Below are positions 906 through 60,590 of a stretch of 64,000 nucleotides of DNA, piece after piece (the first letter of the stretch is position 1; each line of letters opens with the position of its first letter). The position numbers and the translations under genes were made by a program. Under the pieces are notes generated by a model, which made no database searches, was not told the origin of the DNA, and worked only from the letters and a program-made list of their open reading frames with translations. This DNA is from Tridacna crocea (lineage: Eukaryota > Mollusca > Bivalvia > Cardiida > Cardiidae), in assembly GCA_943736015.1 (NCBI GenBank), contig OX031063.1, forward strand, positions 2,399,001-2,463,000. The letters run 5' to 3'.

Positions 906-1323
906 TTAACCCATTACCACGCAATCCCTACTTTAGACGCCCCTGAGAAAGAAGCCCTTTGAAAACACTATGGTAACCAGCATTTTCTCCTTTTCCCATA
1001 GTGTTTTCTATCCTTCCCAGAGCAAATTTCTATTTTTTAGTCACATTTATTTTGTCATCTGCAGTTGCTTTCAATTTGGACCAGTCTAAAATTTTCTTGT
1101 GTGGTAAAGGGTTAACTCTTTACCACACAATCCCTAGTTTTAACGACCCAGCGCAGGAAAGCCTTTTGAAAATGTTTCGGGAAAAGGAGAGAATGCTAAT
1201 AACCAGCATTTTCTCCTTTTCCCACAGTATTTTCTTTCTACCACATTCAAGGAAAAAAACTACATTTTGTTGTGGTCTGCAAATGCTTTCAATTTGGTCT
1301 TGTGATGTTTGGTAAAGAGTTGA
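906..1323 (+). mobile_element. Two FB type A copies sharing one TTAA
   Basis: Copies 906-1115 and 1112-1323 share TTAA 1112-1115. The first has lost the left hairpin arm (GAAAACACTATGGT runs straight into AACCAGC); the second is complete but ends in TTGA. Confidence 0.88.
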
Positions 1324-1637: not shown

Positions 1638-1848
1638 TTAAACCTTCGGCTGCTGATTGAGACTCACTGACCTTTTGTGGACAGTGTAGATCAAGATCAG
1701 ACTGCACAAAACGTGCAGTCTGATCTTGATCTACACTATCCGAGAAGGAGATATTTCTCCCCAAAAGTTAACTGAGAAATAGCAACCCTTGAGTTTCTAC
1801 TATCCATTTTAAGGTATTGTTTAACTTACACACCAGGATAAGGGTTAA
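1638..1848. mobile_element. H2 hairpin MITE, full length
   Basis: 211 bases from TTAA to TTAA. Hairpin around 1680-1741 pairs GGACAGTGTAGATCAAGATC with its complement. Ends AAACCTTCGGCTGC and CAGGATAAGGG are imperfect inverted termini. Confidence 0.82.
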
Positions 1849-2282: not shown

Positions 2283-2592
2283 GGTTAAATAGCAGACAAG
2301 GCAGATCCAAAATTAGAACACATTTTTTTGTGGAGTCTGATTTAGATCTACACTGTCCGAATAGTTAACCCTTTACCAAACGACAAAATTTTAGACTGGT
2401 TCAAATTGAAAGCATTTGCAGAGGACAAAAAAAAGTGACTGAAAAATTGAAATTTGTCCTGGGAAGGGTAGAAAACACTGTGGGAAAAGGAGAAAATGCT
2501 GGTTACCAGCATTTTCTCCTTTTCCTACAGTGTTTTCAAAGGGCCTCTTTCTCAGGGGCGTCAAAAGTAGGGATTGTGTGGTAATGGGTTAA
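2283..2592 (-). mobile_element. H2 remnant followed by full FB type A
   Basis: H2 remnant 2283-2368 ends CTACACTGTCCGAATAG at the TTAA (2365-2368) that opens the FB copy 2365-2592. Confidence 0.8.
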
Positions 2593-6762: not shown

Positions 6763-7367
6763 AAAGTGGCCATCGTTGTAAATGCCATCGGTGAAAGTGT
6801 GTTTGGTTAAGGCACAAGTTGCTGGCAGAATAACAAATCTTAAAATTAGAATTAATGTAGACAACTTTTAAATAACTTTTAGGCCAGTGACTTGAACTTT
6901 GACCTACCACATTTTAGCAGATCAACCGACTTAGGATAAACCCCTTTTATTTAATTGGTTTGAATGAAACTCTTCTGTACTTCTTATAAAGAAATGTTTA
7001 CATTTGGCCTCTACTGGAACTTTAATCATTTAATGTAGCAACAGCATCAATTTTTTTCGATGACGATAAGATGTCTGTTTCTGTGAGAGATTTGTACAAA
7101 ATAGCGTGGATGATAAACAGTCTACTCAATACTGTCAGAGATGACCTTACCAACAGACAACTTTGCAAGCACCGTTGTATACTCAGAATGATATATAGGA
7201 CTTGCAGCAGAGTCCATGAAGACGTGTAAAAACAGTATGGCAAAAGGAAAATGTTGAAATGCCTTTTCTTTTCACCCTATGATGTTTTCATATGTGGTCT
7301 CTTGTAAGAAAGGAAATGAAAAATTTAATAAACTGCTGGAATTATGCAATAGTCCCCTTAACCCATT
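6763..7367. other. No gene seen
   Basis: Unique AT-rich DNA between FB copies. Confidence 0.4.
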
Positions 7368-7812
7368 ACCAAACGACAATATTTTGGACTGGTCCAAATT
7401 GAAAGCATTTGCAGACGATAAAATTAAAGTGACGGAAAATTTGAAATTTGTTTTGTGAAGGGTAGAAAACATTGTAGGAAAAGGAGAAAATGCTGGTTAC
7501 CAGCATTTTCTCCTTTTCCCACAGTGTTTTCTAAAAGCTTCTTTCTCAGGGGCATCAAAAGTAGGGATTGTGTGGTAATGGGTTAACCCTTTCCCAAACG
7601 GCAAATTTTTGAACTAGACCAAATTGAAAGCATTTGCAGACGACAACTCAACTCTTGCTGAAAAGATGGTTTCTATCTATGATAGGGTAGAAAACATTGT
7701 GGGAAAAGGAGAAAATGCTGGTTACCAGCATTTTCTCCTTTTCCCACAATGTTTTCAAAAAGGCTACTATTCCAGACCCGTAAAAACCAAGGATAGTTTG
7801 GGAAAGGGTTAA
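7368..7812 (-). mobile_element. Two full FB copies sharing one TTAA
   Basis: 7368-7586 and 7583-7812. Both carry type A cores; the second has the TTTCCCAAACGGC terminus otherwise typical of type B, so end and core types are mixed. Confidence 0.88.
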
Positions 7813-8593: not shown

Positions 8594-8985
8594 GTTAACT
8601 CTTTACCAATTATTTCTTGCTTTAACCCTTTCCCAATCGTCAAGTTTTAGACTCTTCCAAACCGAAAGAGTTTGCTGATGGCAATTTTAACTTTCATAGC
8701 AATGGCAGAAAATTATCCGAAGGGGCAGAAAAGACTGGGGGAAAAGGAGAAATTGCTCGATGCAATTTCTCCTTTTCCCACACTGTTTTCAAAAGACTTG
8801 TACTGCAGACACGTGAAAACAAGGGCTTGTTTGGGAAAGGGTTAAGGATTCTGGGATATAGCTGTTGAAAACATGGTTGGAAAGGGAGAAAATGCTGGTA
8901 ACCAGCAATTGAAAACACGCTTGGAAAGGGAGAAAATGCTGGTAACCAGCATTTTCTCATTTTCCCTCTGTTTTCTACCATTTGA
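8594..8985 (-). mobile_element. FB type B copy flanked by fragments
   Basis: TTAA 8622-8845 is type B with a shortened loop (GCTCGATGC). 8863-8985 is an FB core in which the left arm is duplicated with period 45 (8866 and 8911). Confidence 0.8.
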
Positions 8986-9086
8986 AAAGCAGCTTTCACC
9001 TTTTGAACCACCTCTAGATTTCAGTCTGCTGCAGCATTCAATATGCGTATCTCTAAATATTTGTATTTGGTAAATTATTAACATCA

Positions 9087-10828: not shown

Positions 10829-11026
10829 GGGCCTGTATTCACCAACCGTTTTGGAGAATATTCTTTGTCTTATTCTTCAGAATTTTGTCCATGTGAAAGT
10901 AACAGGACTTCTGATTGGCTAAACCATTCGGTTTAGCCAATCAGAAGTCCTGTTACTTTCATGGTCAGGAAATCTTGAAGAAGAAGACCAAGAATGTTCT
11001 TAGGAATGGTTGGTGAATACGGACCC
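10829..11026. mobile_element. G6 palindromic element, full length
   Basis: Starts GCCTGTATTCACCAACC and ends GGTTGGTGAATACGGACC. Centre is a near-perfect palindrome (GATTGGCTAAACCATTCG then complement). Other copies at 48.6, 53.8, 60.4 and 63.7 kb. Confidence 0.82.
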
Positions 11027-18018: not shown

Positions 18019-18690
18019 TTAACACTTTCCCACACAATCCAGACTTTTGACGACCCTGGAGAAGAGGGCCTTTGAAAACATTGTTGGAAAAGGAGAAAAT
18101 GCTGGAAACCAGCATTTTCTCCTTTTCCCACATTGTTTTCTACCCTGTCGCAGACAAATTTCATCATTTAACCCTTTCCCAAACAAGCCCTGTTTTTTAC
18201 ATGTCTGCAGTAAAAGTCTTTTGAAAACACTGTGGGAAAAGGAGAAATTGCTCATAACGAGCAATTTCTCCTTTTCCCACAGTGTTTTCTTCCCTTTTTG
18301 AGAACTTTCTGCCATTTTCTCCAAATCTAGAATTGTCGTCTGCAAACTCCTTTGGTTTGGAAGGGTCCAAAATTTATCGTTTGGGAAAGGGTTAACTCTT
18401 TCCCAAACGACAAATTTTAGACTTTTCCAACCTGAAAGAGATTGGAGGCGACAATTTTAAACTTGATGAAAATGACTGAAAAATCTCCAAAAGGGTAGAA
18501 AACACTGTGGGAAAAGGAGAAATTGCTCGTTACGAGCAATTTCTTCTTTTCCCACAGTGTTTTCAAAAGAGTTACATTGCAGACACGTAAAAACCAGGGC
18601 TTGTTTGGGAAAGGGTTAAGTGACATTCAAATTGTCGTCTGCAAAAGCTTTCAATTTAGACAAAATTTTGTTGATAGGGAATGAGTTGAT
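18019..18690. mobile_element. Chain of three FB copies plus a fragment
   Basis: 18019-18171 (A, plus, right side truncated), 18168-18395 (B, plus) and 18392-18619 (B, minus), joined by shared TTAA at 18168 and 18392; fragment 18629-18690 follows. Best place to compare A and B cores side by side. Confidence 0.9.
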
Positions 18691-25653: not shown

Positions 25654-25857
25654 TTAACCATTAGCCTACAAAGTGCAACTCGAGGCTCTTGCAGACAGTG
25701 TATATCCAAGATCAGATAGCACAAATCATGCAGTCTGATCTTGGCTATACACTGTCCGATGATTAGATATTCTCCCAAAAAAATGACTTGAAATTGCAAT
25801 ATTTTGCTCTTATTACTATTGGCCGAAAAGTTTCAATAAACATATCCAGTTAGTTAA
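25654..25857. mobile_element. H2 element, full length
   Basis: TTAA 25654-25657 to TTAA 25854-25857, hairpin at 25690-25760. Confidence 0.8.
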
Positions 25858-30783: not shown

Positions 30784-31337
30784 TTCTGACAAGGTGGAAA
30801 AAAATCTGGGAGATGGGAGAAACACTGGTTACTAGTATGTTCTACTTTCTTTCTCTGGGTTGGTAAAACTCAGGATTGTCTTTTTAACCCTTTACCTGAT
30901 GTGCCAATTTGAGACTCTTCCATTTCAGCAGCAAATAAAGATATGATGTCAAAAATATGGACAAATGAGGATACAAATATCTGATTGAGTGGAAAACATT
31001 GTGGGAAAAGGAGAAATTGCTCGTTACGAGCAATTTCTCCTTTTCCCACAATGTTTTCAAAAGTTGTCTGTTGTTGATGCGTCAAAGTGAGTATCTATGG
31101 AGTAAAGGATTAACCCATTACCACTCAATCCCTACTTTTGACGCCCCTGAGAAAAAAGCCTTTTGAAAACATTGTGGAAAATGGAGAAAATGCTGGTAAC
31201 CAGCATTTTCTCCTTTTCCCACAGTGTTTTCTACTCTTTCCAGAACAAATTTCAATTTTTCAGTCACCTTTATTTTGTCGTCTGCATTTCCTTTAATTTG
31301 GACCAGTCCAAAATTTTCTCGTGTGGTAATGAGTTAA
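30784..31337. mobile_element. Chain of three FB copies (worn A, D, A)
   Basis: 30784-30887 (minus, worn), 30884-31113 (type D: B-like core AAATTGCTCGTTACGAGCAA with a C-like end GTATCTATGGAGTAAAGG) and 31110-31337 (plus, type A). Shared TTAA at 30884 and 31110. The last lies just past the TAA of the FG/SR-like gene. Confidence 0.87.
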
Positions 31338-34951: not shown

Positions 34952-35180
34952 TTAACCCTTTACTCCATAGATACTCATTTCTACGCATTGCTTGTAGGAG
35001 CCTTTGGAAAACATTGTGGCAAAACGTGAAATTGCTCATGACGAGCAATTTCACCTTTTGCCACAATGTTTTCTATGCTATCAAAAGGTGTCATATACAC
35101 ATAAGAAACAGCTTCATCCTTGCTGTTATTTAGGGTCAATCAGAGATACCATAGAAATGCCTTATGGGATAAAGGGTTAA
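34952..35180 (+). mobile_element. FB type C, full length
   Basis: Arms GGCAAAACGTGAAATTGCTC and GAGCAATTTCACCTTTTGCC; ends CCCTTTACTCCATAGATACT and GGGATAAAGGG. Confidence 0.9.
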
Positions 35181-44043: not shown

Positions 44044-44287
44044 CCGGTGTAATGCAGAGAAATGACCCCCATTACAAAATGACCCCCGGGTCATTTCTCG
44101 ACGTCGAGGAATGACCCATGGGTCATTTCTCTACGTCGAGAAATGACCCATGGGTCATTTCTCGACGTAGAATAATGACCCGGGTCATTTTTCTACGTCG
44201 AAAAATGACCCATGGGTCATTCCTTTACGTCGAGAAATGACCCGGGGGTCATTTTGTAATGGGGGTCATTTTTCTGCATTACACCGG
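44044..44287. mobile_element. 244-bp palindrome built from 32-bp palindromic units
   Basis: Begins CCGGTGTAATGCAG and ends with the exact complement; the outer arms agree over about 60 bases with one mismatch. Inside, ACGT nodes recur at 44101, 44133, 44165, 44195 and 44227 (period 32, once 30), each separated by a palindrome such as AATGACCCATGGGTCATT or its CCCGGG variant. Probably a non-autonomous DNA element with inverted termini; no obvious target duplication. Confidence 0.75.
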
Positions 44288-50035: not shown

Positions 50036-50489
50036 TTAACCCTTTACCAGACTATCCCAAACTTAACCCTTTACTCCATAGATACTCATTTCTACGCATT
50101 GCTTGTAGGAGCCTTTAGAAAACATTGTGGCAAAAGGTGAAATTGCTCGTCACGAGCAATTTCACCTTTTGTCACAATGTTTTCTATGCTATCAAAAGGT
50201 GTCATTTACACATAAGAAACAGCTTCATGCATGCTGTTATTTAGGGTCAATTAGAAATACCATAAAAATGCCTTATGGGGTAAAGGGTTAATATGACCCT
50301 TGAAAATAAGACTTACCAAAACGTTACATTAAAAGGAGAAAATGCTGGATACCAGCATTTTCTCCTTTTCCAACAATGTTTTCTAACCTTTCAAAAACAA
50401 ACCGATCGTTCGGAGCACATATAAATTGTAGTCTGCAAATACTTTGAGTTTGGGCTAGCCTAAAATTTTGTCGCATGGGAAAGAATTAA
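50036..50489 (+). mobile_element. FB fragment, type C full length, and a truncated FB
   Basis: 50036-50063 is a left-end scrap; 50063-50291 is type C with perfect arms (GGTGAAATTGCTCGTCACGA); 50328-50489 lacks its left part. Confidence 0.85.
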
Positions 50490-51268: not shown

Positions 51269-51931
51269 TTAACCCATAGGCTGCTAAGCGCAACTCGCTG
51301 ACCCTTTTGCAGATAGTGTAGATCAAAGATCAGACTGCACAGAATGTGCAGTCTGATCTTTGATCTACACTGTCCGATAAGGAGATGGGATTTCCCAAAA
51401 CTTAATGATGAAATAGCAATATTTGGGTCATTACTATTGACTTGAAAATTTCATTTCAGTTATTTAGCAGGATAAGGGTTTAACTCTTTCCCTTACAAGC
51501 CCTTGTTTTTTCGGTACAAGTCTTTAGAAAACACTGTGGGAAAAGGAGAAATTGCTCATAATGAGCAATTTCTCCTTTTCCCACAGTGTTTTCTAGCCTA
51601 TCGGAAAACTTTCTGCCATTCTCATCAAATTTAAAATCGTCATCTGCAAACACTTTGAGTTTGGGACAGTCTAAAATTTGTCATTTGGGAAAGGGTTAAC
51701 TCATTACCAAACAACACTATCTTAGGCTTGTCCAAATTAAAACCATTTGCAGATGACAAAATAAAAGTGGCTGAAAATTTGAAATTTGTTTTGTAAAGGG
51801 TAGAAAACATTGTGGGAAAAGGAGAAAATGCTGGTTACTGGTAACCAGCATTTTCTCCTTTTCCCACAATGTTTTCTAATGGCCTCTTTCTCAGGGGCGT
51901 CAAAAGTAGGGATTGTGTAATAATGGGTTAA
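51269..51931. mobile_element. Chain H2, FB type B, FB type A
   Basis: H2 51269-51483 (best copy, perfect stem), FB-B 51480-51698 (plus), FB-A 51695-51931 (minus, apex extended to GGTTACTGGTAACC). Each junction is a single shared TTAA. Confidence 0.9.
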
Positions 51932-53940: not shown

Positions 53941-54085
53941 TTAACCCTTTACCTGATTGAGTGGAAAACATTGCGGGAAAAGGAGAAATTGCTCATTACG
54001 AGCAATTTCTCCTTTTCCCACAATGTTTTCAAAAGCTGTCTCTTGTTGATGCGTCAAAATGAGTATCTATGGAGTAAAGGGTTAA
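53941..54085 (-). mobile_element. FB type D, shortened
   Basis: B-like perfect core with the C-like right end GAGTATCTATGGAGTAAAGG; about 85 bases of the left arm are missing relative to the 30.9-kb copy. Confidence 0.83.
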
Positions 54086-59774: not shown

Positions 59775-60165
59775 CTCAGCGGACAGTTTAGATTAAGATC
59801 AGACTGCACAGACATGCAGTCTGATCTTGATATATACTGTCCGATATTTTGTGATTGTATATTCAGGTATTTCGAAAGAAAAGAAACAACATTGTAACAG
59901 AAATATTTGAGTCCTCATTAAAGACAGAAATTGTCAGTTGTTTATCAGTCTATAGGTTGAAGTGGTAGAATGACCCTGCAATTTCTCCTTGAAACAGACG
60001 GAATCTATTCGTCTTTTTATCTGGGCTGACAGAATAATTTCACTGCAAAAGAAGAAACATTTTGCCACAATTTAAGAGTCAATGAGCGGATGATATAGAT
60101 CGGTGATCGGACAGTACTTTCAGTGCGGTCTGATCTTGACCTACTACACGCCCTGAAAGTTCTGC
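59775..60165. mobile_element. Two H2 hairpin cores
   Basis: 59775-59845 (good stem) and 60090-60165 (worn, GCGGATGATATAGATCGGTG). Confidence 0.65.
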
Positions 60166-60440: not shown

Positions 60441-60590
60441 GCGGTCCGTATTCACCAACCATTTTTTTGAAAGATTTTCTAACTTTGAAAGTAACACAAC
60501 TTCTGATTGGCTAAACCAAATGGTTTAGCCAATCAGAAGCTGTGTTACTTTCATATATTGAAAACTCTTCTGAGTAAGACTTTGAGCGTT
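60441..60590. mobile_element. G6 element, right part lost
   Basis: GCGGTCCGTATTCACCAACC start and central palindrome GATTGGCTAAACCAAATGG with complement. Confidence 0.78.

What the first reader, a model, noticed from the sequence alone, without database searches (positions are those of the whole stretch)
18019..18619. Paired substitutions preserve the central stem between FB subfamilies
Left-arm/right-arm pairs read GGAGAAAATGCTGGT / ACCAGCATTTTCTCC in type A, GGAGAAATTGCTCGT / ACGAGCAATTTCTCC in type B and GGTGAAATTGCTCGT / ACGAGCAATTTCACC in type C (50063-50291). The outer stem also varies in pairs (ACATTGTGGG with CCCACAATGT versus ACACTGTGGG with CCCACAGTGT). Compensated changes in several positions suggest selection on structure, or arm-to-arm correction by hairpin-templated repair.
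Basis: partly seen in the sequence, partly recalled or inferred. Interest (0 to 1): 0.85.

Follow-up and report, generated by a model that had tools for sequence, protein, structure and literature searches.

The report
Conserved central palindrome in TTAA MITEs
The paired changes are real, but they are mainly a few changes inherited by whole subfamilies of a hugely repeated small jumping element whose central mirror-image core is much better kept than its flanks; single copies show little such repair, so the pattern does not show that a folded RNA is being preserved.

Summary
Observation confirmed. 18019-18689 is an old TTAA-flanked MITE (type A) holding two type-B copies at an internal TTAA; 50063-50291 is type C. 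All share a central 67-bp palindrome. Five consensus cores have 0 of 33 mismatched pairs yet differ at five pairs, few inherited events. In 219 copies private changes are mostly one-armed (591 single, 66 double, 55 expected; Watson-Crick doubles 44, 27.6 expected), with no wobble bias (G.T 185, A.C 208). Genome-wide: type-A stem 191,599, type B 10,018, paired intermediates 34 and 14. Partner doubles exceed non-partner doubles 1.9-fold, about 1% of changed copies. An uncompensated A.C lineage has 4,045 copies, mirror change 214. A and C2 flanks differ at 75/128 positions, core arms at 8/66. So the core sequence is constrained in source lineages, resident copies decay arm by arm, and rare template-switch copying (L028) supplies some double changes but looks too slow to maintain the palindrome. 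Best guess: a symmetric protein-binding module of a piggyBac-type MITE. RNA-structure selection is not supported.

The parts
18019..18689 (+). outer, older type-A MITE copy, split at an internal TTAA (18168-18171) by two later type-B copies; its right remainder is about 18620-18689
   Evidence: joined flanks align to model 1-227 at 172.7 bits
18074..18140 (+). type-A core palindrome of the outer copy (mismatches at p8, p12, p33)
18168..18395 (+). type-B MITE copy, TTAA to TTAA
18223..18289 (+). type-B core palindrome
18392..18619 (-). second type-B MITE copy, opposite orientation, sharing the TTAA at 18392-18395 with the first
18498..18564 (-). type-B core palindrome (one mismatch at p20)
50063..50291 (+). 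type-C2 MITE copy
50118..50184 (+). type-C2 core palindrome with a G.T mismatch at pair 13/55
34952..35180 (+). second C2 copy in the window
30884..31113 (-). type-C1 copy: C-class flanks with a core that differs from type B only at pair 8
2365..2592 (-). Acg copy (p8 C-G) carrying the uncompensated A.C at pair 12 that is common genome-wide
51696..51931 (-). type-A copy whose centre is doubled (GGTTACTGGTAACC), possible template-switch footprint
8862..9074 (+). type-A copy with tandem left arms (L-L-R), possible template-switch or slippage footprint

Best explanation
This is a non-autonomous TTAA-inserting MITE of about 229 bp with piggyBac-type ends and a central 67-bp palindrome. Shown: the palindrome is far better conserved between subfamilies than the flanks; its few between-subfamily changes are mirrored in both arms; resident copies then lose pairing arm by arm. 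Inferred: in the source elements both arms are kept to one sequence because the core is a symmetric recognition module, most likely two identical half-sites for a dimeric protein such as the C-terminal domains of a piggyBac-type transposase, so a change usually spreads only when both half-sites carry it. Template switching between arms, for which there is one clear footprint, can make both changes in one event and is the likely mutational route. Pairing itself (a folded RNA or DNA hairpin) is then a by-product of the symmetry, not clearly the selected trait.
For: TTAA at both ends in 92 of the 96 hits (of 310) that reach both model ends; nested insertion at TTAA with a recoverable empty site. 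Consensus cores: 0 of 33 mismatched pairs in each of A, Acg, B, C1, C2; flanks A-C2 differ at 75/128 (shuffled control 0.725) but core arms at 8/66, A-B 39/128 against 6/66: the sequence, not only pairing, is kept. Private rate in arms 0.037-0.040 against 0.064-0.070 in flanks of the same copies. Residents decay largely independently: 591 single, 66 double (55 expected); G.T 185, A.C 208. Genome counts: A 191,599; B 10,018; paired intermediates 34 and 14, so the two-pair A/B difference left no abundant paired intermediate. Arm copying: partner doubles 156 and 198 against 93 per configuration for non-partners (ratio 1.89, CI 1.58-2.26); L028:7884-7957 left-right-right arms in which the first right arm mirrors the left arm's private p6/p8 changes and flank. 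The genome holds at least 118 DDE_Tnp_1_7 matches, many without inner stops. Precedent: piggyBac ends carry identical 19-bp palindromes bound by a pair of CRDs (PMC11707139, passages).
Against: No protein binding was shown, the parent transposase was not identified, and the one transposase neighbourhood I could read (L036, 4 kb) had no matching TTAA/TIR pair. 67 bp is much longer than the 19-bp piggyBac palindrome and sits in the middle, not near the ends. Copies with inherited one-armed changes are common (4,045 with A.C at p12), so neither perfect symmetry nor perfect pairing is essential at every position. Lower private change in the core may partly reflect minor flank lineages, and singleton counts in the large A1 class do not show it. 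The partner excess among residents could include minor inherited lineages; without p6, p12 and p32 it shrinks (42 doubles, 38.8 expected).
Confidence: 0.5

Rival explanations
1. Selection on a folded DNA hairpin or cruciform (or single-stranded intermediate) in the source elements: pairing, not sequence, matters for amplification.
For: All five consensus cores are perfectly paired although five pairs changed; p14, p21, p26 and p31 are A-T/T-A or G-C/C-G flips, which keep pairing without a wobble intermediate.
Against: 28 of 33 pairs do not differ between the consensus cores although flanks differ at up to 77/128 positions, more than pairing alone seems to predict; inherited mismatches are common.
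Confidence: 0.2
2. Selection on an RNA stem in transcripts (small-RNA precursor or similar), with compensatory evolution.
For: Three window cores fold as RNA into a 32-bp hairpin at -49.5 to -54.9 kcal/mol; covariation beats the shuffles; Watson-Crick doubles are in small excess.
Against: No wobble preference on either strand (185 G.T, 208 A.C); four of five diagnostic pairs are transversion flips; resident copies rarely compensate beyond chance; no Rfam match at gathering cut-offs in the window. Any perfect palindrome folds this way. Selection on so many resident copies is implausible (inference).
Confidence: 0.1
3. Arm-to-arm correction (template switching at a quasi-palindrome) alone maintains the palindrome without selection.
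For: Partner doubles are 1.9 times non-partner doubles; carriers of the same private compensated change are mostly not flank neighbours, as repeated events would give; a clear left-right-right footprint in L028; such events are described for RNA genes (PMC8794818, abstract and passages) and yeast quasi-palindromes (PMC3820800, abstract).
Against: The rate looks too low: c of about 1.8 times the G-to-A rate, an upper bound if part of the excess is inherited, leaves about 45-55% of pairs mismatched at equilibrium in a simple neutral model of mine, against 0 of 33 in the consensus cores. 4,045 copies carry an uncorrected A.C against 214 with the mirror change. It also does not explain why the arm sequence itself is conserved. 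Caveat: copying could be faster in transposing source elements than in residents.
Confidence: 0.12
4. The palindrome is re-formed repeatedly: autonomous parents carry one arm near each end, and each MITE subfamily arose by internal deletion joining them, so arms match because the parent's two ends match.
For: Subfamilies differ greatly in flanks but share ends and core; piggyBac has identical palindromic sites at both ends.
Against: Of 9 left-half and 8 right-half hits in the 309 kb scanned, none lie on one strand and in the right order within one locus (my reading of the list; most loci are 3-10 kb, so long elements could be missed). C1 and C2 have very different flanks yet nearly the same core, which needs several coincident deletions.
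Confidence: 0.08

Closest known systems
piggyBac-superfamily MITEs (TTAA target)
   Same: TTAA at both ends as shared target duplication, mostly CCCT-starting short inverted termini, no coding capacity expected at this size, very high copy number, host holds piggyBac-type transposase genes
   Different: 67-bp near-perfect central palindrome conserved between subfamilies whose flanks have largely diverged; mobilising transposase not identified
19-bp palindromes of piggyBac ends and imperfect palindromes of the piggyBat left end (PMC11707139, passages read)
   Same: palindromic DNA in a TTAA transposon, recognised symmetrically by a dimer
   Different: here 67 bp, single and central; no sequence relation tested
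Template-switch compensatory mutation in RNA hairpins (PMC8794818, abstract and passages read); quasi-palindrome correction in yeast (PMC3820800, abstract read)
   Same: one-event mirrored changes and arm copying; the L028 footprint fits
   Different: here in DNA of a MITE, with a rate bounded from counts over about 200,000 stems, and apparently insufficient to maintain the palindrome alone
   Same: inverted repeats able to fold back
   Different: FB elements as I recall them have long terminal inverted repeats of tandem modules; here termini are short and the palindrome is central

Membership tests
TTAA-specific (piggyBac-type) MITE | TTAA target duplication | tested here: met
   92 of the 96 hits that reach both model ends have TTAA at both (such hits lean towards TTAA because the model ends in it); nested copies with an empty site restored by joining flanks
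TTAA-specific (piggyBac-type) MITE | short terminal inverted repeats starting CCCT / CCYT (the motif is recalled) | tested here: met
   TTAACCCTTTCCC within 2 mismatches: 96 matches against 2.05 expected; consensus ends mostly CCCT, but some read CTCT or CCCA
TTAA-specific (piggyBac-type) MITE | small, non-coding, high copy number | tested here: met
   229 model positions; 108 hits in 64 kb; 191,599 exact type-A stems genome-wide. Coding was judged only from the size and the window frame list
TTAA-specific (piggyBac-type) MITE | shares ends with an autonomous piggyBac-type element in the host | tested here: inconclusive
   118 DDE_Tnp_1_7 matches; only one neighbourhood (L036) could be read and it gave no matching TTAA/TIR pair
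RNA structure under selection | compensation within lineages and tolerance of G.U over A.C | tested here: not met
   185 G.T against 208 A.C; private doubles 66 against 55 expected; Watson-Crick doubles 44 against 27.6 expected, a small excess
Template-switch maintained hairpin | mirrored private changes with stem extension in single copies | tested here: met
   one clear case, L028:7884-7957; partner doubles 1.9-fold
Template-switch maintained hairpin | rate high enough to keep arms equal | tested here: not met
   simple model, residents only; common inherited A.C
FB (foldback) element | long terminal inverted repeats made of tandem modules (recalled) | tested here: not met
   termini are short; the long inverted repeat is central

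The most novel reading that the evidence does not exclude
The core is an essential cis module that acts as a folded hairpin in the spread of a TTAA MITE (through a single-stranded or cruciform step not known to me for piggyBac-type elements), so its arms evolve jointly by mutation plus single-event template switching; the family's huge copy number would be a natural assay for template-switch rates.
Probability: 0.13. Interest if true: 0.8.

Novelty: new variant of a known kind. Interest (0 to 1): 0.5.

Why it matters
Paired substitutions in a stem are normally read as proof of a functional fold. Here genome-wide counts separate three layers: inherited source-lineage events, largely independent decay of resident copies (about 200,000 exact stems and their mutated relatives), and a small measurable excess of mirrored changes. 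That makes the rate of arm-to-arm copying at a palindrome boundable in a large eukaryotic genome, and warns against calling RNA structure from MITE covariation. If the core is a recognition module, it would explain why a mirror-image sequence stays the same while its surroundings change.

Tried and rejected
RNA families: no Rfam match at gathering cut-offs in the window. A DNA-similarity search of the own genome with the 67-bp core found nothing (that search skips very common words); exact patterns worked instead. Slid-partner counts first suggested about a two-fold excess of private double changes; with site rates and copy age allowed for it shrank to 66 against 55, so the slid control was set aside. 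It shrinks further without p6, p12 and p32 (42 against 38.8; Watson-Crick 26 against 18.3) and is clearest in copies scoring 150 or more (19 against 11.4). Over all 33 pairs, 45 of 219 copies carry at least one private compensated pair (54 such cells, 29.9 expected); carriers of one such change are mostly not flank neighbours, though some p10 carriers are. Satellite copies in L027 and L029 first looked like a mismatched subfamily; they are tandem arrays and were reduced to one copy each. The 219 copies are 250 core-spanning copies less those duplicates and copies scoring under 60; L001-L015 were fetched by an exact type-B core and lean that class to perfect cores. Singleton counts (random copies only): core below flank in B, C, C2, Acg, A2 and in the 27 best A1 copies, but not in larger A1 sets (0.0017 flank, 0.0051 core over 139; 0.0090 and 0.0100 over 75; 0.0067 and 0.0084 in 87 chosen by right flank). 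Singleton counts depend on sample size, so I lean and the consensus comparison. Centre changes (A to T 19, to G 7, to C 3 in A1) fit loop inversion, but flank A-to-T is also common (0.051), so not claimed. The autonomous partner could not be identified. The listings (20 of 28 papers shown; 15 of 26; 12 of 14; 12 of 30) showed no paper that I recognised as describing this family; absence from print is not shown.

Full report
Where it is. The window is a 64-kb stretch of an unnamed 1.05-Gb assembly of 31 contigs. A profile built from 14 hand-picked elements finds 108 copies in the window and 310 in all 309,465 bases held at that point. In the 20 stretches taken by place (L016-L035, 200 kb) there are 134 hits, satellite units included, or about 0.67 per kb; three of the 20 had none. 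By extrapolation (inference) the genome holds several hundred thousand copies.

Anatomy. A copy is about 229 bp from TTAA to TTAA, with short inverted termini (mostly CCCTTTACC/CCCTTTCCC...) and a 67-bp palindrome (33-bp arms, one central base) that starts 55 bp from one end and stops 107 bp from the other. TTAA is at both ends in 92 of the 96 hits that reach both model ends. The stretch in the finding is a nested insertion: an older type-A copy carries two type-B copies of opposite orientation, sharing one TTAA, at an internal TTAA; joining the flanks restores a single element at 172.7 bits.

The observation. On 40 gapless window cores the covariation beats the shuffles and all slides; these cores were hand-picked mainly from a list of palindromes and lean towards paired ones. 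The pairs that differ between subfamilies are p8 (T-A/C-G), p14 (G-C/C-G), p21 (A-T/T-A), p26 (A-T/T-A) and p31 (G-C/C-G). Relative to the common A core, B differs at p8, p26 and p31; C1 at p26 and p31; C2 at p14, p21, p26 and p31; a part of A (Acg) at p8. On a tree of 160 copies built from flanks only, paired states need 1 (p21), 2 (p26), 3 (p14), 4 (p31) and 6 (p8) changes, against means of 12.7-33.0 when shuffled. So the covariation is mainly a handful of inherited events plus private noise.

Resident copies. If structure were kept in each copy, or if arms were corrected often, private changes would be mirrored. In 219 copies, leaving out the five diagnostic pairs, 591 cells have one side changed and 66 both; matched permutations give 55.0 +- 5.6 (33 of 1,000 as high). 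Watson-Crick doubles are 44 against 27.6 +- 4.4 (none of 1,000 as high), a small real excess that shrinks to 26 against 18.3 without p6, p12 and p32. One-sided changes give 185 G.T and 208 A.C of 722 over all 33 pairs. In a transcript of one strand G.U would be tolerated and A.C would not; there is no such bias on either strand.

Genome-wide counts. Exact 31-bp stems: type A 191,599, type B 10,018. The two possible paired one-step intermediates between them occur 34 and 14 times. One-sided G-to-A at p28 in type A: 3,116 + 3,078. Mirrored double at p28: 156; at p22: 198. Non-partner double (one arm at p28, the other at p22): 104 + 82, or 93 per configuration. The ratio of partner doubles (geometric mean) to non-partner doubles is 1.89 (1.58-2.26), and the p28 excess is about 1% of the 6,350 changed copies. 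Hence arm-to-arm copying happens, or something that looks like it, but rarely.

Is copying enough? If mismatches are resolved at rate c and single changes arise at rate mu, the ratio gives c of about 1.8 mu for G-to-A. This is an upper bound if part of the excess is inherited. In a simple neutral model (mine) such rates leave about 45-55% of pairs mismatched at equilibrium. The five consensus cores have none of 33. Copying might be faster in transposing elements; but a one-sided A.C at p12 in the Acg core is found in 4,045 exact 59-mers against 214 for the mirror-image change, so most of those copies inherited it uncorrected, and 6 of 13 C2 cores share a G.T at p13. These two also show that perfect pairing is not needed at each position, and that no single transcript strand reads both as wobbles.

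A footprint. L028:7815-8076 has three arms in the order left-right-right. The first right arm mirrors the left arm's own changes at p6 and p8 and runs on into its flank (TTAG ... CTAA); then an ancestral-looking right arm follows after a short TAAC overlap (read by eye). This is what a template switch with incomplete return would leave (mechanism: PMC8794818, abstract and passages; PMC3820800, abstract). L025:1053-1161 (left-right-right-right), window 8881-8963 (left-left-right) and the doubled loop at 51801-51878 are weaker candidates; two other triple calls, in L006 and at window 58634, look spurious.

Constraint. Consensus flanks differ at 39/128 (A-B), 75/128 (A-C2) and 68/128 (C1-C2), with 0.725 for shuffled sequence; core arms differ at 6/66, 8/66 and 4/66. 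Private change is lower in arms than in flanks (0.037-0.040 against 0.064-0.070) and in small subfamilies, although singleton counts in larger A1 sets do not show it. So the sequence of the core, not just its pairing, is kept in the lineages that spread.

Mechanism. The likeliest reading is a symmetric recognition module: both arms should carry the same half-site, so mutations spread mostly when mirrored. In piggyBac the two ends carry identical 19-bp palindromes bound by two C-terminal domains of a dimer, and piggyBat binds imperfect palindromes with its own, differently folded, C-terminal domains (PMC11707139, passages). The host genome has at least 118 matches to the piggyBac transposase domain, many without inner stops, but the mobilising one is not identified: the single neighbourhood I could read (L036) has no fitting ends. 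Shown: TTAA insertion, core conservation, mirrored subfamily changes, largely independent decay, rare arm copying. Inferred: what binds or reads the core.

Verdict.

Noticed in passing
window 1679-1741, 25694-25756, 51315-51371, 59780-59843: A second palindromic repeat family (GGACAGTGTAGATCAAGATCAGACTGCAC and its mirror), four copies in the palindrome list.
   Followed up: no
window 10829-11026 and 60486-60553: A third palindromic repeat (TGAAAGTAACA...TGTTACTTTCA); at 10829-11026 the arms reach 97 nt at 80%.
   Followed up: no
window 44044-44287: A block of overlapping palindromes built from AAATGACCC...GGGTCATTT and TCTACGTCGAGAAATG units, with inverted arms up to 106 nt at 93%.
   Followed up: no
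L027 and L029: MITE copies carried inside tandem arrays (hits spaced about 1.64/3.27 kb in L027 and 1.85 kb in L029), so the MITE has been taken into satellites.
   Followed up: partly
window 906-1321, 7358-7812, 18168-18619, 51480-51931: MITE copies abut and share one TTAA, as if the TTAA at an element end were itself a target.
   Followed up: no
window 53943-54085 and L006:6-141: A short C1-like form of about 143 bp that keeps both ends and the core but lacks most of the long flank.
   Followed up: no
G000, for example C3, C5, C9, C10 and C15 (492-aa frames) and C3, C4, C10, C18 (624-aa frames): Several sets of piggyBac-type transposase frames with the same or nearly the same score and no stops, suggesting recent spread.
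   Followed up: partly
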